From Gammaproteobacteria bacterium RIFCSPHIGHO2_12_FULL_37_14 (lineage in GTDB: Bacteria > Pseudomonadota > Gammaproteobacteria > DSM-16500), in contig MGXV01000024.1 of assembly GCA_001801485.1 (NCBI GenBank), positions 405 to 64,404 of the forward strand: a stretch of 64,000 nucleotides of DNA, read 5' to 3'. The notes below the pieces were generated by a model that was given only the letters and a program-made list of their open reading frames with translations, searched no databases and had not been told where the DNA came from. Position 1 is the first letter of the stretch. Every line of letters starts with the position of its first letter. The translations under genes were made by a program, and so were the position numbers. Of this stretch, positions 14,585 through 37,514 are shown one piece after another.

Positions 14585-14844
14585 CATGGAAAATTACTTT
14601 TACTAAACAAGCTCAAAAAGATGCGAAACGATTAGCATCAGTAGGTTTAAAACCAAAAGCTGAAACCTTATTAAATTTATTGAAATCAAATCCCTTTAAA
14701 AATCCACCGCCCTATGAAAAATTGATTGGAGATTTAGCTGGCGCTCATTCACGGCGAATCAATATTCAACATAGGCTTGTTTATCAAGTCTATTCAAAAG
14801 AAAAGATAATTAAAGTTATTCGCATGTGGACTCATTATGATTAG
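14581..14844 (+). CDS. yoeB: Txe/YoeB-type mRNA interferase toxin
   Basis: 87 residues with a GTG start inside the antitoxin stop region. The RelE-fold toxin cuts mRNA in the ribosomal A site. The known catalytic residues of YoeB have equivalents: E46 (PPPYEKLIG), R65 (NIQHRLVYQV) and the C-terminal His-Tyr at 85-86 (RMWTHYD). Complete. Unusually, the last eight bases overlap the start of pyrD on the same strand, so the toxin stop is coupled to a pyrimidine gene. Confidence 0.94.
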   Translation: MTWKITFTKQAQKDAKRLASVGLKPKAETLLNLLKSNPFKNPPPYEKLIGDLAGAHSRRINIQHRLVYQVYSKEKIIKVIRMWTHYD

Positions 14845-15859
14845 TGCTATCTATCCCTATTTAAAAAAACTTCTCTTCCTCTTTGAACCAGAGCGATCCC
14901 ACACTATCGCTTTAAAAAGTTTACAATTGGCTTACCGCTGTGGGTTATTGCGATTCTTAGCAAAACCAGCTCCTCATCCACGTACCATCATGGGTCTTAC
15001 CTTTCCACATCCGATTGGATTAGCTGCCGGTCTAGATAAAAATGCTGATTACGTGGATGCCTTAGCTACACTTGGTTTTAGTTTTATTGAAATTGGTACG
15101 GTTACTCCTAAACCACAAATTGGCAATCCTCGACCGCGATTATTTCGATTAGTCGAACAAGAAGCGTTGATTAATCGCATGGGTTTTAATAATAAAGGGG
15201 TGGAGTACGTTGCAAACAAATTAGAAAAAACTCATTATCGCGGAATTTTGGGTGTAAATATCGGTAAAAATAAAGATACGCCTTTGGAACACGCGGTGGA
15301 TGATTATCTTTTATGTTTTCGCCGTTTATGGAAATGTGCTAGCTATCTTACTATTAATATTTCATCGCCAAATACACCGGGATTAAGAGAATTACAACAA
15401 GCCGACGCATTAACCATGTTACTCGCAGCACTAAAAAAAGAGCAGGGTGAGATTGCAAAAATGCATCGCTATGTTCCTCTTATCGTAAAGATTTCGCCTG
15501 ATTTATCTTCTACCGAGTTACATGATCTCGCGATGATTTTATTACAACAACAAATTGATGGAGTAATAGCAACGAATACAACTATCCAACGTGAAGGAGT
15601 AGAAACTTCCTTACTTGCCAACGAGACTGGTGGGATGAGTGGCCGGCCATTACAAATACGCAGTACGCAAGTGATCAAACAGTTACATCACTTACTGCAA
15701 AATAAAATTCCAATCATTGCATCCGGCGGCGTAATGGACAAAGCTTCCATACAAGAAAAACTAAATGCCGGTGCAAGTTTAGTGCAAATTTATACCGGGT
15801 TTATTTATCATGGGCCAAAAATAATAAGAGAGTTAGATAGATCTGAATTCCCAACTTAA
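14837..15859 (+). CDS. pyrD: Dihydroorotate dehydrogenase (quinone), class 2
   Basis: 340 residues, normal for the membrane-associated class 2 enzyme that oxidises dihydroorotate using FMN and passes electrons to quinone. The N-terminal amphipathic helix region (residues 1-40) is present, followed by PIGLAAGLDKNADYVDAL, INRMGFNNKGV, the catalytic loop NISSPNTPGLRELQ and IASGGVMDKASIQEKLNAGA. Its ATG lies inside yoeB (eight-base overlap), so it is probably translated from the toxin-antitoxin transcript as well as any promoter within it. The 3' end overlaps the convergent LRR gene by 27 bases. Confidence 0.96.
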   Translation: MISAIYPYLKKLLFLFEPERSHTIALKSLQLAYRCGLLRFLAKPAPHPRTIMGLTFPHPIGLAAGLDKNADYVDALATLGFSFIEIGTVTPKPQIGNPRPRLFRLVEQEALINRMGFNNKGVEYVANKLEKTHYRGILGVNIGKNKDTPLEHAVDDYLLCFRRLWKCASYLTINISSPNTPGLRELQQADALTMLLAALKKEQGEIAKMHRYVPLIVKISPDLSSTELHDLAMILLQQQIDGVIATNTTIQREGVETSLLANETGGMSGRPLQIRSTQVIKQLHHLLQNKIPIIASGGVMDKASIQEKLNAGASLVQIYTGFIYHGPKIIRELDRSEFPT

Positions 15860-30294: not shown

Positions 30295-32466
30295 ATGTTT
30301 GATGCCGATCGCCCCATCATCACTAGCTCACAAGATCGTTTAAATCGAACTACCTTTGCTAAATATTTGGCCCGCTCGATTCTTGATCACCAGAATCCTG
30401 AAAGTTTTGTGATTGGTTTATATGGTGGTTGGGGCGTAGGAAAAACCTCTGTCGTGAATATGATGATAGAAGAATTAAATTTTGCCGCGAGCAATATGTT
30501 GGATGAAGAAAAACCCATTATTCTAAATTTTAGTCCCTGGAGTTATTCCGGACAAAATCAATTGATTTATAGTTTCTTTCGCAGATTATCGTCCACATTA
30601 CGTAGTATACCGGATTTAGATAATGCTGATCGCATCATTCATTTACTTGAATTATATGTATCGTTTTTTACTCATCAACCCGTTCCCAAATCTTTACAGG
30701 CTAAGCGATCCTGGTTGTTGCGTTTGCTATCTTGGAAAAATGATGCGGCCTATGGCTGGGAATCCGGTCGTGATCTCACCCTGGTAAAAGCTGAGCTGAA
30801 TGAATTGCTCCGTCAACAAAAACATAAAATCATTATTATTGTTGATAATATTTCACGATTATACGATAACGAAATTAAACAAATTTTCCAAATTGTAAAA
30901 TCCATGGGTGATTATGCCAATACAACTTATTTACTTTCCTTTGACAAAACACAAGTTATTCAAGCTATTAATCATGTGGATCATGGTGGCGGCAATGAAT
31001 TTATTGAAAAAGTGATTCAATTACCCTTTGAAGTACCACCGATACTACGACAAGATTTAGAAAGCATTTTGTCTGATCGTCTAAATGATATTATTAATAC
31101 CATTCCTGAAGAAGCTTGGAATAGTGAATATTGGGCCGATATTTATTTTTCTTCATTGAAATTCTTTTTTGAAAATTGCCGTGATATCACACGCTATGTT
31201 AATACCTTGCAATTTAGCTATGAACGTTTACGAGACATTGTTAATCCCGTCGATTTTTTTGCACTGACTGCTATCGAAGTATTTTTACCTCACGTATATT
31301 TTGGCATTCGAGATAATAAAGATTTATTTACTGATTTGCTAGATGATGTCTATGCGCTCGATGAAAAACAAATTCAAAAAGATAAGCTGCGTTGCAATGA
31401 AATTTTATCACGTGCTGATCATGTTTCCTCTGAAGTATTAATGGAATTATTATTACGTCTCTTTCCTCGATTGCGTCGAATCTATCAACCTGATCGCTTA
31501 AGCTATCATTCAAGAGCCGTAGCAAGAAAGTTGCGTCGAATTTGTAGTCCAGATTTATTTGAAGCATATTTCCGCTTATCCATGCAAGCTGGGCAAATTC
31601 CTGAATCTGAATTTGAAACGATTCTATCATTAGCGAATGATAGAGAAGCTTTTGATCAAGCACTCACCCGATTAAATCAGGATGAACGTACGCTCAAATT
31701 TTTAGATCAGCTTGATAGCAAAGTGATACACAATCTTCCACGCAATCACATTCCGATTATCATATCTGCCTTATTAGATAATGGCGATTTATGTCCACAG
31801 GGAACATGTACTCGGTTAAGCTTAGATACGCCGATGCGCATTCATCGCATTATTCATGGGTTATTACAGCGTTTTAAAAAAGCTGAAGAACGTTTCGCAA
31901 TTTTAGAAACCGCCATAGGCCAAGCAAACAAAAGTATTTGCCTGATCATCCATGAACTTAAAGAACAAAGTCGCGAACATCTCGCAGAAGAAGATACGTT
32001 TTTGCCACTCGAATTTCGTGATGTAACACCCGAACAATTGAGCGAATTACGCAAACTGGCTGTTACTCAAATAGAGCAATGGGCAAAAAGTGGTCGGCTG
32101 GCTGAACACCCCCATCTATTGCCTATACTGTATGCATGGCGTGATTGGGGTAATTCTGAAGATTGCAAAAAATTTGTCGACGAAATGGTACAAACTGATC
32201 GTGGATTAATCGCATTACTCCTAACAACGCTTGATAAAGCGATTGCCCAAGCCATGAGCGAATACGAAAGAAATCCGGCATGGGAAATTTATCTTGATGA
32301 TATTCGAGCATTTATTCCTATCGAAAAGATCGCAGCCCATGCAAAATTACTTTTTGAAGATCCTTATTTTGAAAAACTCCGTGAACGTGAACAACTAGCT
32401 CTGATGATTTTTCTTGATTTAATCAAAGCAAAAACTATAAAAAAAATTCCAAGAACTACCGCATAA
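30295..32466 (+). CDS. KAP family P-loop NTPase, soluble form
   Basis: 723 residues. Walker A is GGWGVGKT (44-51) in FVIGLYGGWGVGKTSVVNMM; NFSPWSYSGQNQLIYSFF follows as in KAP proteins. The Walker B region IIIVDNISRL (180-189) keeps the first Asp but replaces the usual DDLDR by DNISR; next come IKQIFQIVKSMGDYANTTYL and LLSFDKTQVIQAI, clear KAP features. The membrane insert found in many KAP proteins between A and B is not obvious. The C-terminal 350 residues are helical and unrecognised. KAP NTPases occur in phage-defence and membrane-associated systems, but no defence partner is adjacent. Has an AAAGGAG ribosome binding site. Confidence 0.85.
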   Translation: MFDADRPIITSSQDRLNRTTFAKYLARSILDHQNPESFVIGLYGGWGVGKTSVVNMMIEELNFAASNMLDEEKPIILNFSPWSYSGQNQLIYSFFRRLSSTLRSIPDLDNADRIIHLLELYVSFFTHQPVPKSLQAKRSWLLRLLSWKNDAAYGWESGRDLTLVKAELNELLRQQKHKIIIIVDNISRLYDNEIKQIFQIVKSMGDYANTTYLLSFDKTQVIQAINHVDHGGGNEFIEKVIQLPFEVPPILRQDLESILSDRLNDIINTIPEEAWNSEYWADIYFSSLKFFFENCRDITRYVNTLQFSYERLRDIVNPVDFFALTAIEVFLPHVYFGIRDNKDLFTDLLDDVYALDEKQIQKDKLRCNEILSRADHVSSEVLMELLLRLFPRLRRIYQPDRLSYHSRAVARKLRRICSPDLFEAYFRLSMQAGQIPESEFETILSLANDREAFDQALTRLNQDERTLKFLDQLDSKVIHNLPRNHIPIIISALLDNGDLCPQGTCTRLSLDTPMRIHRIIHGLLQRFKKAEERFAILETAIGQANKSICLIIHELKEQSREHLAEEDTFLPLEFRDVTPEQLSELRKLAVTQIEQWAKSGRLAEHPHLLPILYAWRDWGNSEDCKKFVDEMVQTDRGLIALLLTTLDKAIAQAMSEYERNPAWEIYLDDIRAFIPIEKIAAHAKLLFEDPYFEKLREREQLALMIFLDLIKAKTIKKIPRTTA

Positions 32467-32494: not shown

Positions 32495-34216
32495 CTACCT
32501 TCTAACTCTAGGCGTTTCTATTTCGGGAGGAGCGCTTGGTTGAACCAGTGGATTCATCGGTAAAGCATGAGATAGATTCTCAATAATAGACTTCATCTCA
32601 TCCATTATCGTTGTTAAGCGAGTCACCATACCCGCTAATGATGTGTCTATTTTCATCTTCGAGATAATGGTAAAAATTAGCCCATATAATTCCTTATAAT
32701 CTTCTTGGGAATAAATATTATTAGGCAAGGGTGTGATTAATTTTTCTTTAAATTCCTGAAGCTTCTTCAGCCATTGCACTCGTATTGTTTCTGTTTTCTG
32801 AAGTCGATCACGAATATTATCGAGCATCGTTCGGCCAATTTCTGGACGAGGAGCAAGATAAGCTTCGATAGGTGGAAACACTGAAAGAAAAGCGTGATAT
32901 AACGCAACTTCAGGTCTGTTTATAATTTCATAATTCAGAGATGCTTGCATCCATACTTCTGGTAGTACGTTCTGACCATCCTGTATGATGTGATTAATAA
33001 TATCTTTTTTTAGCTTAAATAAATCATAATCTTCTTTAAACCCACAATATTCATCAAAAAAATTAAACAGATCGCTATCATAGTCATTGCAATCAGTAAC
33101 ATTTTTTAAAAAGCAAATCGCTTCATCAAAATGTCTGTTGCTCATTAATTGCTTAAATATACCGTAACTCGCCGTGCTCTGATCTTCTGGAGTAAACCGA
33201 ATAAAATCACTAGTCTGAAATCCTTTAAACGATGGCGACAAAGAATGAAAATGAATACGTGCATTATCATTTTTTTGATAAGCATAATATAAAAATAAAC
33301 TATAATTAACTTTGTCTTTTAAATCTTGTTCAGTCGCTTTTTCTAAAAAAATATTTAATAATTTTATACAAATTCTATCTGAGAATATATGATTGTTTAA
33401 GCCGTACAAAAAAAACTCCTGAAAAATACTCCTGTCAGTATTTAAAACGAGCTTTATAATGCGATGTATGTCTTTATTGTTTTTTTCGAGCTCCTCAAAC
33501 GCATCTTTCGTTCCATGAGCTAAAACAAGAGCTTTAGAAGTCGAATATTTTTTTAACCAGATACAGTCTTTAAAATTTGGGAGAGATACTCCAGTTAATA
33601 TCATCACTAAAAATGCACATTCAGACAGCTTTTGATTGACACACTGACTGTCATTAATTTTAATATGATGATTCTGCAAAAATTCGGAAGAAATACTACT
33701 ATCTAACGGCAAAAATGTATCTGACAAAAACGCCTTGGTAGCAATATCAGAACCGTGAATGATTGCAAGAGCACACCATGCCATCGCTTCGATAGGTTTA
33801 TCTCGTTGAGCACGATAAATATAAGCGAGAGTCTGATAAACATAACTATTAAACAACGGTGCCTGCCCAAAATAAAAAATTTTTAGTAGGCTCTGTTCCG
33901 CAGCTAATTTTTCAGCCTGCGTCACTTGGTTAGGTTGAAAATGAGATTTATAAGTAGGCACTCTTCCGATCACATAATTAAAAATAGGATGATCTGGATA
34001 AGTTGTGAGGTGTTCTTTTGCAATTTGATAAGCTATTTCTCCTGTTACTGATGTTTTAATATTGTTCTCTACCTGCACACGAAAATTCGCCTCGCCAAAA
34101 GGAGAACGTAAAATTAATTCTATTGCCGCATCCACATCTTTTAATTTATGTAGCGCTTCTACTTCACTTAATGCAAGACCAACATATTTTGTTTTAATTT
34201 GGATTTGTTTTGTCAT
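32495..34216 (-). CDS. Unknown 573-residue helical-repeat-like protein, candidate effector
   Basis: Start taken at the ATG 34216, two codons after a TTG. Not recognised. The first 200 residues look like TPR/Sel1-like helical hairpins (LHKLKDVDAAIELILRSPFG, EIAYQIAKEHLTTYPDHPIF, AYIYRAQRDKPIEAMAWCAL) and the middle is helical. The end is Pro-rich (NPLVQPSAPPEIETPRVRR). No signal peptide. It is convergent with the KAP gene (28 bases between stops) and divergent from pyrE. Legionellales effectors are often lone, helical genes like this; that role is only inferred. Confidence 0.55.
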   Translation of the reverse strand: MTKQIQIKTKYVGLALSEVEALHKLKDVDAAIELILRSPFGEANFRVQVENNIKTSVTGEIAYQIAKEHLTTYPDHPIFNYVIGRVPTYKSHFQPNQVTQAEKLAAEQSLLKIFYFGQAPLFNSYVYQTLAYIYRAQRDKPIEAMAWCALAIIHGSDIATKAFLSDTFLPLDSSISSEFLQNHHIKINDSQCVNQKLSECAFLVMILTGVSLPNFKDCIWLKKYSTSKALVLAHGTKDAFEELEKNNKDIHRIIKLVLNTDRSIFQEFFLYGLNNHIFSDRICIKLLNIFLEKATEQDLKDKVNYSLFLYYAYQKNDNARIHFHSLSPSFKGFQTSDFIRFTPEDQSTASYGIFKQLMSNRHFDEAICFLKNVTDCNDYDSDLFNFFDEYCGFKEDYDLFKLKKDIINHIIQDGQNVLPEVWMQASLNYEIINRPEVALYHAFLSVFPPIEAYLAPRPEIGRTMLDNIRDRLQKTETIRVQWLKKLQEFKEKLITPLPNNIYSQEDYKELYGLIFTIISKMKIDTSLAGMVTRLTTIMDEMKSIIENLSHALPMNPLVQPSAPPEIETPRVRR

Positions 34217-34306
34217 GGCCAATAGTGCCTCATTTTTTATTTTTTAGATGCAACATCATAACGAAAATGTGAATAAAAATATATGTAGATGGATAGTGCT
34301 GTGGTG

Positions 34307-34335
34307 TTGACCTTCGTGTAATTTTTTTGTATTCT
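34307..34335 (+). promoter_or_regulatory. pyrE-pyrF promoter
   Basis: TTGACC (34307-34312), a 17-base spacer and TATTCT (34330-34335). Transcription would start near 34342, downstream of the in-frame alternative start at 34337 and 45 bases before the chosen pyrE ATG at 34388, so it helps fix that start. Confidence 0.6.
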
Positions 34336-34387
34336 TGTGGAAAATTTATACATTCGTTTGGAATACCGCAACATCAATGAGAATATT

Positions 34388-34987
34388 ATGCCTCTTAATC
34401 AATCGCTCACCTTTGCCCTTTACCAAATTGGCGCCATTCAATTCGGTGAATTCAAATTAAAAAGCGGGCAATTGTCGCCTATTTATATTAATTTAAGAAA
34501 AATTATTTCTTACCCAGATTTATTAAGGACGATAGGTGCCGCTTTTTGGGATAACATTGGTCAGTGGCAATTTGATCTTATTTGTGGTGTTCCATATACT
34601 GCCTTACCGATTGCTACCTATCTATCGCTTGAACACAATATTCCCATGGTCATGCGTCGTAAAGAAAAAAAAGATTATGGCACCAAACAATTGATTGAAG
34701 GTGTATTTAATCCCGGGCAACACTGTTTGATCATCGAAGATATTATCACTACGGGTAGTAGCATTCTCGAAACCGCAAATGATTTAGAACAAGCAGGATT
34801 AAAAATAACTGATGTGATTGCCCTAATTGATCGTGAACAAGGTGGAATAGAAAATCTTTCTAAACGATTTAATCCTCATACCATTATCTCATTAACAGCT
34901 ATTTTACATTCACTATTACACTCCAGTCTGTTAAATTCAACAGAATGCAAAATTGTTGAACGGCTTTTAGAAGTTAAATCTCAGTAA
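34388..34987 (+). CDS. pyrE: Orotate phosphoribosyltransferase, UMP-synthase (eukaryotic) type
   Basis: 199 residues. Makes OMP from orotate and PRPP. The PRPP-binding loop is LIIEDIITTGSSILET, and the catalytic Lys loop is RRKEKKDYGTKQLIEG. Segments CGVPYTALPIAT, KDYGTK and ALIDREQGG match the N-terminal half of animal UMP synthase as I remember it (VPYTALPLAT, KDYGTKRLVEG, LLDREQGG) and differ from E. coli PyrE (PAYKGIPIAT, KDHGEGG). Followed after 36 bases by pyrF, in the same domain order as the eukaryotic fusion. Start supported by the promoter at 34307-34335 and TGAGAA upstream. Confidence 0.9.
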   Translation: MPLNQSLTFALYQIGAIQFGEFKLKSGQLSPIYINLRKIISYPDLLRTIGAAFWDNIGQWQFDLICGVPYTALPIATYLSLEHNIPMVMRRKEKKDYGTKQLIEGVFNPGQHCLIIEDIITTGSSILETANDLEQAGLKITDVIALIDREQGGIENLSKRFNPHTIISLTAILHSLLHSSLLNSTECKIVERLLEVKSQ

Positions 34988-35023
34988 CATAGGCATCTAC
35001 TTAACATAGAGAGATCTGCTTAA

Positions 35024-35803
35024 ATGTTTCATTTATCTTATAGCGAGCGTTCTAAATATTGTCTTTCTTCTTTAGCTAGGCGATTGTTCGAATTATGCGA
35101 TGAAAAAGCTACTAATCTCGCCTTTTCTGCTGACGTTACCTCGACTGAACAACTACTAACGTTAGCGAACCAATTAGGGCCTGAAATTTGTTTACTAAAA
35201 ACCCATATTGATATCATTGAAGATTTTACACCTTATCTCGCTTTAGAGCTGGGCAAGCTAGCGCATAAACACCGTTTTTTAATATTTGAAGATAGAAAAT
35301 TTGCTGATATTGGTAATACCGTCAAATTGCAATATGCTGGCGGTATTTATCATATTGCTGACTGGGCCGATATGATTAATGCTCATTGCTTACCAGGACC
35401 TGGTATGGTGAAAGGCCTCGCTGAAGTAGGCCGAAAAAAAAATCGCGGCTTAGTATTAGTAGCAGAAATGAGTTCTGCCCAACATTTTTTTAGCGAAGAT
35501 TATTTAAAAAATACATTGAAAATAGCCGAGCAATTTGCCGATTTTGTTATTGGATTTATTACGCAACACGCACCTTCTACCGATCCCCATTGGATTAACA
35601 TGACGCCAGGCGTTAAATTAGACGATGGCTCTGATAAGCTAGGCCAACAATACATTACTCCTAAGAAAGCCATTATTGAAAATCGTGCTGATATTATTAT
35701 TGTCGGGCGAGGTATTATTGCTGCAGCCGATCCACTAGCAGAGGCTCGCCTATACCGCGAACAAGGATGGAAAGCTTATCAAGAACGTTGTCAGAAAAAA
35801 TAA
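35024..35803 (+). CDS. pyrF: Orotidine 5'-phosphate decarboxylase, eukaryotic (URA3/UMPS) type
   Basis: 259 residues, longer than the usual bacterial PyrF (about 230-245). Active-site Asp90, Lys92 and Asp95 lie in LIFEDRKFADIGNTVKLQY, the form found in URA3 and UMP synthase; E. coli-type enzymes instead read DLKFHDIPNT-like. Further eukaryote-like stretches: TNLAFSADVTS, LGPEICLLKTHIDI, MTPGVKLDDGSDKLGQQY and IIIVGRGIIAAADPLAEA. Converts OMP to UMP. Cotranscribed with pyrE. Origin by transfer from a eukaryote, or a shared ancient bacterial lineage, cannot be decided from this sequence. Confidence 0.94.
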   Translation: MFHLSYSERSKYCLSSLARRLFELCDEKATNLAFSADVTSTEQLLTLANQLGPEICLLKTHIDIIEDFTPYLALELGKLAHKHRFLIFEDRKFADIGNTVKLQYAGGIYHIADWADMINAHCLPGPGMVKGLAEVGRKKNRGLVLVAEMSSAQHFFSEDYLKNTLKIAEQFADFVIGFITQHAPSTDPHWINMTPGVKLDDGSDKLGQQYITPKKAIIENRADIIIVGRGIIAAADPLAEARLYREQGWKAYQERCQKK

Positions 35804-35939: not shown

Positions 35940-37514
35940 ATGGTTGAATCTACACGCGAGGTGAATATGCCAGCCAAAGAAAAAATAAACTTATCTATCA
36001 AAGAATTAGTGGATCTCGCGCTTGCACGTGGTGAAGGCGAATTAGCAGCTAATCAAGCCTTAGTCGTCAAAACAGGGATGAGAACAGGTAGATCTCCTAA
36101 AGATCGATTCATCGTCAAAGACGCTATCACTGAAGATCAAGTAGATTGGAATGCCATTAATCAACCCATCAGTCCAGAAAAATTCGATGCCTTGTGGCAA
36201 AAAGCGATTCAATATCTAAGCAAACAACCCACTCATTTTGTTTCTTATTTACGCGTTGGTGCACATGAACAACTAGGAATACCGGTTAAAGTCATGACCG
36301 AGCTTGCTTGGCATAGTCTATTTGCTTACGTTCTTTTCATCCGACCAGAATCCCCTGTTACGCATAATGAACCTGGACAGTGGACTATTTTAAGTGTGCC
36401 AAATTATCAGACCAACCCAGCTGAAGATGGTGTCAATGGTGATGCTGCTGTCATATTGGATTTTTCTAAACGTTGTATTCTCATTTGCGGCACACATTAC
36501 GCGGGCGAAATGAAAAAAGCTATGTTTTCTGTGCTCAATTTTATCTTACCTAAACATGATATTTTACCCATGCATTGTGCAGCTAATGTGGGTAAATCGG
36601 GTGATACAGCATTATTTTTTGGTTTATCCGGAACGGGTAAAACAACATTATCGGCCGATCCAGAACGTTTTTTGATTGGTGACGATGAACATGGTTGGGG
36701 AGAAGATGGCGTTTTTAATTTTGAAGGGGGATGTTATGCAAAATGCATTGATCTATCTCACGAACGTGAACCACTCATTTGGGATGCGATTCGTTACGGT
36801 TCGGTAATTGAAAATGTTGTACTCGATCCAAAAACTAAAGAACCTATTTATTCGGATGCGACGCTGACACAAAATACCCGTGCAGCCTATCCACGAGAAT
36901 ATATACCACAGCGCATTGAAGAAAATCGAGGTGCACAGCCTGACTCTGTACTATTTCTCACTTGTGATTTATATGGCGTATTACCGCCAGTGGCACGGCT
37001 TAGCATTGAACAAGCGGCTTATTATTTCTTAAGCGGTTACACGGCTCTTGTTGGCAGTACGGAAGTAGGACAAGGCAGTGGCGTCAAATCAACTTTTAGC
37101 ACTTGTTTTGGCGCACCTTTTTTTCCACGACCTCCGCAAGTTTATGCTGAATTATTGATGAAACGATTAAGACATCACAACACTGTTGTTTATCTTGTCA
37201 ATACGGGTTGGACAGGTGGAGCCTATGCTCAGGGTGGGCAACGATTCTCGATTCCCATTACTCGTGCCATTGTACGTGCCATTGTAAATGGAAAATTGAA
37301 AAATGCTGTCTATGAAAAATTGCCAGGATTCCATTTAGATGTTCCTACAGAAATCACGGGTATCGATTCTAAAATACTCAATCCACGAAAAGCCTGGCAA
37401 GATACCTCCGCCTATGAAACCAATGCTCATATCTTGATTGAAAAATTTATTGAAAATTTCAAACGATTCAATGTAACCGAGGAAATCAAAAACGCTGGAC
37501 CGCATGCCGATTGA
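35940..37514 (+). CDS. pckA: Phosphoenolpyruvate carboxykinase (ATP)
   Basis: 524 residues, within the usual 520-540. Converts oxaloacetate to PEP for gluconeogenesis. Features: [15 protein letters not shown], the kinase loop [15 protein letters not shown] (P-loop 228-235), [21 protein letters not shown] and [29 protein letters not shown] precedes the ATG by five bases. The 3' end overlaps yggS by 11 bases. Fits an organism that grows on amino acids (inference). Confidence 0.97.

What the first reader, a model, noticed from the sequence alone, without database searches (positions are those of the whole stretch)
34388..35803. pyrE and pyrF encode the two halves of a eukaryotic-type UMP synthase
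Both products carry segments that I recognise from animal UMP synthase, not E. coli PyrE/PyrF: VPYTALPIAT, KDYGTK and IDREQGG in PyrE; FEDRKFADIGNTVK, CLLKTHID and VGRGIIAAAD in PyrF. They are adjacent, in the fusion order, 36 bases apart and share one promoter. This could be a transfer from a host, or a bacterial ancestor of the eukaryotic fusion. A third de novo gene, pyrD, is a normal bacterial class 2 enzyme.
Basis: partly seen in the sequence, partly recalled or inferred. Interest (0 to 1): 0.8.

Follow-up and report, generated by a model that had tools for sequence, protein, structure and literature searches.

The report
Animal-like pyrimidine enzymes in bacteria
Two neighbouring genes of an uncultured bacterium encode the last two enzymes of pyrimidine synthesis in a version best known from animals and plants; relatives of this bacterium share it and other bacterial groups have it too, sometimes as one fused gene, so it is an ordinary housekeeping pair with an unresolved shared history with eukaryotes rather than a recent theft from a host.

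Summary
pyrE (34388-34987) and pyrF (35024-35803) lie 36 bases apart in the OPRT-OMPDC order of animal UMP synthase, and both resemble UMP synthase far more than E. coli PyrE/PyrF (181 vs 59 bits; 281 vs 25 bits). But the pair is not peculiar to this window. In the order of its closest relatives (it includes what I infer to be Aquicella lusitana) 31 of 36 genomes have this PyrF as their only OMPDC over cut-off, and 28 of 36 have the matching PyrE beside or fused to it. The same PyrF type occurs patchily in Chlamydiae (31/116), Patescibacteria (12/286), Bacteroidota (7/296), a Woesearchaeota phylum (2/194) and the class Gammaproteobacteria (9/274). OPRT-OMPDC fusions occur in bacteria too, one arising inside the window's own order. 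Where the order forms a clade, no eukaryote lies in it; PyrE places eukaryotes, weakly, beside Patescibacteria. Deep branching is unresolved (AU p 0.09-0.51), so the direction of any transfer cannot be settled. Function: ordinary de novo UMP synthesis. New member of a known kind.

The parts
34388..34987 (+). pyrE: orotate phosphoribosyltransferase of the eukaryotic/chlamydial type (best NCBIfam model PRK13809), 199 aa
   Evidence: the ORF listing starts it at a GTG at 34337, but the ATG at 34388 gives the 199 aa seen in close relatives (198-201 aa)
35024..35803 (+). pyrF: orotidine-5'-phosphate decarboxylase of the eukaryotic type, 259 aa
34988..35023 (+). 36-base spacer; the genes are in the same frame but are separate ORFs
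34307..34335 (+). sigma-70-like promoter match upstream of pyrE (not above chance)
35940..37514 (+). pckA, neighbour: directly downstream in L106 and about 1.7-2.4 kb from pyrF in L107, L001 and L006; not found within about 4 kb in L002 and L016
14837..15859 (+). pyrD, class 2 quinone-dependent dihydroorotate dehydrogenase, the preceding step of the pathway; its homologue lies beside the fused pyrEF in relative L002

Best explanation
A normal housekeeping pair for the last two steps of de novo UMP synthesis (orotate + PRPP to OMP, then OMP to UMP), made of the OPRT and OMPDC subfamilies that animals and plants use as fused UMP synthase. These subfamilies also exist, patchily, in several bacterial groups, and the OMPDC in a few archaea. 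The window's bacterium most likely inherited the pair from an ancestor of most of its order (the Aquicella-like order of Gammaproteobacteria), where it stands in for the usual bacterial enzymes. Shown: sequence type, operon-like layout, conserved catalytic residues, spread, order-level clade in the PyrF and concatenated trees, separate fusion histories. Inferred: enzymatic activity, co-transcription, and spread between lineages by lateral transfer. Unresolved: which lineage gave it to which, and whether eukaryotes are donors or recipients.
For: Family. Catalytic positions: yeast URA3 D37, K59, H61, D91, K93, D96, S154, Q215, Y217 and R235 map to identical residues in PyrF (their roles recalled). 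In PyrE, E. coli K26, R99, K100, K103, D125 and R156 are kept, while K73, H105 and D124 are T, Y and E, letters that the printed alignment to 2wns also shows. Clade: concatenated tree, 25 rows of the order 97/95; PyrF tree with outgroup, 18 of the 19 order rows 99/90, window with L021 100/99. Only OMPDC over cut-off in 31 of 36 genomes, one each. Neighbour pckA in 4 of 6 order loci with about 4 kb or more downstream (L106, L107, L001, L006; not L002, L016). GC 0.357/0.390 against an ORF mean of 0.380, sd 0.030, 60 ORFs.
Against: Activity and co-transcription are untested. The order is not uniform: G045 and G046 carry an E. coli-type PyrE, and the PyrF of G045 (L049) falls outside the order clade beside another gammaproteobacterium (95/84), so there was more than one gain or replacement. 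The order is not one clade in the quick PyrF tree (2 changes) nor in the PyrE tree (2 changes, 12% of bootstrap trees with one). Five of 36 genomes show no OMPDC over cut-off, from loss or incomplete assembly.
Confidence: 0.87

Rival explanations
1. An ancestor of this order took the pair from a eukaryotic (for example amoebal) host as a fused gene that later split.
For: Outside bacteria the best similarity is to UMPS; order+animals and order+plants are not rejected as clades (AU p 0.32 and 0.26); several groups with this type are host-associated (general knowledge).
Against: Where the order forms a clade (and 25 of its rows) no eukaryote lies in it. The fused members of the order form one nested clade (100/100), one change within the order, so the split form looks older there. 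PyrE and PyrF are decoupled in several lineages: E. coli-type PyrE in G045, G046 and G111, another PyrE type beside PyrF in five of twelve patescibacterial loci.
Confidence: 0.12
2. The window's lineage is the bacterial source of the eukaryotic UMP synthase fusion.
For: Same domain order, with fusions inside the order (L040, and P0241, P0242, P0248 which the tree places there); order+eukaryotes not rejected (p 0.41).
Against: The fusion inside the order is nested and local; on PyrE eukaryotes go with Patescibacteria (81/89); Patescibacteria+eukaryotes fits as well as the free tree (0.18 log units higher).
Confidence: 0.05
3. Ancient family: OPRT and OMPDC of this type are old and were lost in most bacteria, with few or no later transfers.
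For: Wide, patchy spread over at least five prokaryotic groups and eukaryotes; star-like base in the trees.
Against: Only 9 of 274 genomes sampled from the class, and PyrE and PyrF are decoupled in several lineages, which would need very many losses; chlamydial rows are not one clade in any of the five trees (4-8 changes).
Confidence: 0.15

Closest known systems
Animal/plant UMP synthase (UMPS, OPRT-OMPDC fusion)
   Same: Both domains belong to the same subfamilies, in the same order; OMPDC catalytic residues are the same as in yeast URA3 at the positions checked
   Different: Two separate genes here; in the concatenated and PyrF trees a clade of its own bacterial order
PyrE of NCBIfam NF010382/PRK13809 (that it was built on chlamydial proteins is recalled)
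   Same: PyrE passes its cut-off, 221.3 against 208 bits. PMC3091639 (passages read) labels chlamydial pyrE 'UMP synthase' in a table and reports pyrF missing from all chlamydial genomes it knew
   Different: Here, and in 24 of the 25 loci fetched from the chlamydial phylum (of 31 genomes with a match), PyrE sits beside or is fused to a eukaryotic-type PyrF
Yeast URA3 (OMPDC)
   Same: Eukaryotic-type OMPDC, 242 bits for 1dqw
   Different: Not fused, and the OPRT of 2pry (yeast, recalled) is of the E. coli type: 202 bits to E. coli PyrE, 54 to window PyrE
E. coli PyrE and PyrF
   Same: Same reactions and families
   Different: Only 30% and 25% identical; not adjacent in E. coli (recalled)

Membership tests
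Orotate phosphoribosyltransferase (TIGR00336 / PRK13809) | Score over curated cut-off | tested here: met
   146.9 vs 106.8 and 221.3 vs 208 bits
Orotidine-5'-phosphate decarboxylase (TIGR01740 / PF00215) | Score over curated cut-off | tested here: met
   191.7 vs 92.3 and 204.9 vs 27 bits
Orotidine-5'-phosphate decarboxylase (TIGR01740 / PF00215) | Catalytic Lys/Asp network (yeast K59, D91, K93, D96; roles recalled) | tested here: met
   K59, D90, K92, D95 in the window protein
Eukaryotic-type UMP synthase | Both domains closer to UMPS than to the usual bacterial enzymes | tested here: met
Eukaryotic-type UMP synthase | OPRT and OMPDC in one polypeptide | tested here: not met
   Two ORFs 36 bases apart; fused in some relatives
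Eukaryotic-type UMP synthase | Branches with eukaryotic UMPS | tested here: inconclusive
   Clade of its own order; deep branches unresolved, order+eukaryotes AU p 0.41
Bacterial (E. coli-type) PyrF | Score over PRK00230 cut-off | tested here: not met
   59.7 vs 193 bits
UMP synthase activity | Converts orotate to UMP | not testable with these tools
   Needs an assay or complementation

The most novel reading that the evidence does not exclude
Eukaryotic UMP synthase is one twig of a mainly bacterial radiation of OPRT-OMPDC pairs (Patescibacteria, Chlamydiae, intracellular Gammaproteobacteria), in which the same fusion arose several times; eukaryotes took it from such a bacterium, PyrE pointing to a Patescibacteria-like source.
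Probability: 0.25. Interest if true: 0.6.

Novelty: new member of a known kind. Interest (0 to 1): 0.36.

Why it matters
It shows that a gene pair usually thought of as eukaryotic is standard equipment in most sampled genomes of a bacterial order and recurs in several other prokaryotic groups, with OPRT-OMPDC fusions arising more than once in the same domain order. That gives replicates for asking why these two enzymes fuse, and makes the origin of eukaryotic UMP synthase a question that wide sampling could test.

Tried and rejected
Own genome: none held, so the check for a second pyrE/pyrF was made on relatives. Viral origin: a scan of viral contigs with the single-protein query confirmed nothing (2 pattern matches, neither a relative); a query of that kind finds close relatives only. 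Rfam: no match at the gathering threshold in the window. G012 has two PF00215 hits over cut-off; the second (L108) was first used as an outgroup, but its branch length of 10 and, to my eye, a hexulose-phosphate-synthase-like sequence made me drop it, and one search uses E. coli PyrF and L020. Deep order of groups: seven AU tests reject nothing at 0.05 (lowest order+Chlamydiae, 0.087). The PyrE tree has very long branches (L104, L020), and two rows fell on the wrong side of its chosen outgroup. Literature: eight searches (listed 10 of 10, 20 of 89, 3 of 4, 20 of 734, 20 of 39, 20 of 36, 20 of 278 and 15 of 421 papers). None of the listed titles or abstract beginnings treats the eukaryotic-type pair in this order. 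Beyond listings, only the passages were read; those did not bear on it. Makiuchi et al. 2007 was not seen, only its citation in PMC9512073 and PMC2705460.

Full report
What is there. The window carries pyrE (34388-34987 +) and pyrF (35024-35803 +), 36 bases apart and in the same frame but as two ORFs. NCBIfam names them orotate phosphoribosyltransferase (best PRK13809, 221 bits, over cut-off) and orotidine-5'-phosphate decarboxylase (TIGR01740, 192 bits; the PRK00230 model is missed, 60 against 193 bits). Against the PDB both hit UMP synthase first: OPRT 181 bits against 59 for E. coli; OMPDC 281 against 25 bits. pyrD at 14837-15859 is an ordinary class 2 enzyme.

Is it peculiar to this window? 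No. A scan of genome contigs with PyrF gave 20 loci: Gammaproteobacteria (with a Legionellales MAG and Piscirickettsia), Magasanikbacteria and another patescibacterium, two Chlamydiae, a Woesearchaeota, a Saprospiraceae, and one distant hit (26%) titled Deltaproteobacteria. In the order of G001, the genome of L001, 31 of 36 genomes have a match at E <= 1e-10, and in the same 31 it is the only OMPDC over the Pfam cut-off. 30 of 36 have exactly one PyrE over the TIGR00336 cut-off; in 28 of these it lies beside or is fused to this pyrF by the coordinates, and in G045 and G046 it lies elsewhere and is of the E. coli type. G017 of this order has a 2,154,315-base contig, the length listed for Aquicella lusitana, so I take it to be that species (NCBI: Legionellales, Coxiellaceae). 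Elsewhere, at E <= 1e-20: 9 of 274 in the class of G011 (Piscirickettsia; one of the nine, G042, is of the same order as above and one, G264, has the gene in two pieces), 31 of 116 in the phylum of G009 (Chlamydiae), 7 of 296 in the phylum of G015 (Saprospiraceae, so Bacteroidota), 12 of 286 in the phylum of G005 (Magasanikbacteria, so Patescibacteria), 2 of 194 in the phylum of G014 (Woesearchaeota). Other phyla were not sampled.

PyrE and PyrF do not always travel together. Among loci fetched by the genome search, an eukaryotic-type PyrE (100 bits or more to the window's) is beside or fused to PyrF in 28 of 30 loci of the order (L021-L050; not L048, cut by a contig end, nor L049), 24 of 25 chlamydial (L060-L084), 7 of 7 Bacteroidota (L085-L091, all fused), but 3 of 12 patescibacterial (L092-L103; five have another OPRT type there, four none) and 0 of 2 archaeal (L104-L105, both with another OPRT type; in L104 that OPRT match lies partly in the same 485 aa open frame as the OMPDC). 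Of the eight class members outside the order, three (L055, L056, L058/L059) have it. Flanks are about 1.5 kb, so 'none' means none nearby. The PyrE of G045, G046 and G111 scores 209-239 bits to E. coli PyrE and 53-69 to the window's.

Fusions. Single ORFs with eukaryotic-type OPRT then OMPDC occur in the order (L002/L040, 469 aa; P0241, P0242 and P0248 are placed there by the tree), Chlamydiae (L068), Bacteroidota (452-461 aa) and Patescibacteria (L008, L093, P0256). Some are longer: P0258 adds the electron-transfer part of dihydroorotate dehydrogenase B, and P0260 adds a dihydroorotate dehydrogenase. Counted on the concatenated tree, the fused/split label needs at least 7 changes over 67 rows (28 fused), 5 over the 54 prokaryotic rows and 1 within the 25 rows of the order; many forks are weak, so these are rough, and they cannot tell gain from loss.

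Trees. Rows were hand-picked for spread from the 105 loci and the 120 proteins listed, plus yeast URA3: 86 rows for PyrF (quick); 67 with both domains for the concatenation (careful; of the 86, 12 with no PyrE and 7 with PyrE under 100 bits dropped); 66 for PyrE (13 rows thinned beforehand, five outgroup-type rows added); 73 for PyrF with E. coli and L020 as outgroup (15 rows thinned, two of them for long branches). Concatenation: the order is one clade (97/95), window beside L021 (100/100), animals+plants (12 of the 13 eukaryote rows) one clade (83/89), Patescibacteria one clade (98/88), base open. PyrF with outgroup: 18 of 19 order rows together (99/90), joined by Piscirickettsia and one chlamydial row (97/95), no eukaryote among them; the 19th (L049) lies elsewhere. 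PyrE: the window with six of the order (97/93), the order as a whole not one clade, and eukaryotes with Patescibacteria plus one chlamydial row (81/89). In the quick PyrF tree the order needs 2 changes as well. AU tests on the concatenation reject nothing: order+eukaryotes p 0.41, all eukaryotes 0.42, order+12 eukaryotes 0.51; order+animals 0.32, order+plants 0.26, Patescibacteria+eukaryotes 0.50 and slightly better than the free tree, order+Chlamydiae 0.087. The eukaryote row P0339 is of unknown species, and protists and fungi are barely sampled, so the source of the eukaryotic gene cannot be read from these trees.

How it works. The catalytic positions of OMPDC that I checked are intact, and those of OPRT match the pattern of the UMPS OPRT (roles recalled). 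The pair most likely makes UMP as two enzymes from one transcript; co-transcription is inferred from the 36-base spacing alone, since promoter matches are at chance level. In L106 the run pyrE-pyrF-pckA-yggS-DUF4015-proC is contiguous; in L107, L001 and L006 pckA lies about 1.7-2.4 kb from pyrF; in L002 and L016 it was not found within about 4 kb. GC is ordinary. So this looks like a resident chromosomal gene pair, not a new arrival.

Known background. PMC2705460 (passages) and PMC9512073 (passages) report, citing Makiuchi et al. 2007, that OPRT/OMPDC fusions in the two domain orders arose independently, with OMPDC-OPRT also in some cyanobacteria. Repeated fusion is therefore known; what these data add is the spread of the eukaryotic-type pair, and of fusions in the animal/plant order, among bacteria. 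In the eight searches named in Tried and rejected I saw no paper on that, in a library that lacks most subscription journals.

Noticed in passing
P0258, P0259, P0262, P0263, P0266, P0273: Fusions of a DHOD-B electron-transfer (PyrK-like) part with OPRT and OMPDC, three pathway parts in one chain; P0258 and P0259 are named Parcubacteria, the others unnamed metagenomic. Domains of P0258 checked.
   Followed up: partly
P0260, 844 aa: Magasanikbacteria protein joining dihydroorotate dehydrogenase, OPRT and OMPDC, the last three steps of UMP synthesis.
   Followed up: partly
P0257, 663 aa: OPRT-OMPDC fusion preceded by a SLOG cluster4 domain, unusual for this pathway.
   Followed up: partly
L104 850-2304 (G1133, phylum of a Woesearchaeota): A 485 aa open frame holds an eukaryotic-type OMPDC after a weak match (38 bits) to OPRT of another type, with a second weak OPRT match in the frame before it: possibly a separate archaeal fusion.
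   Followed up: no
G264 (L058/L059): The eukaryotic-type pyrF lies in two overlapping pieces in different frames beside pyrE: decayed gene or sequencing error.
   Followed up: no
window 30295-32466 +: KAP-family P-loop NTPase (PF07693) next to a 575 aa ORF (32495-34222 -) without an NCBIfam match, between epmB and pyrE.
   Followed up: no
P0245: UMPS of Watersipora subatra, 691 aa, appears to carry two OPRT-like stretches before OMPDC (by eye; Pfam reports one).
   Followed up: no
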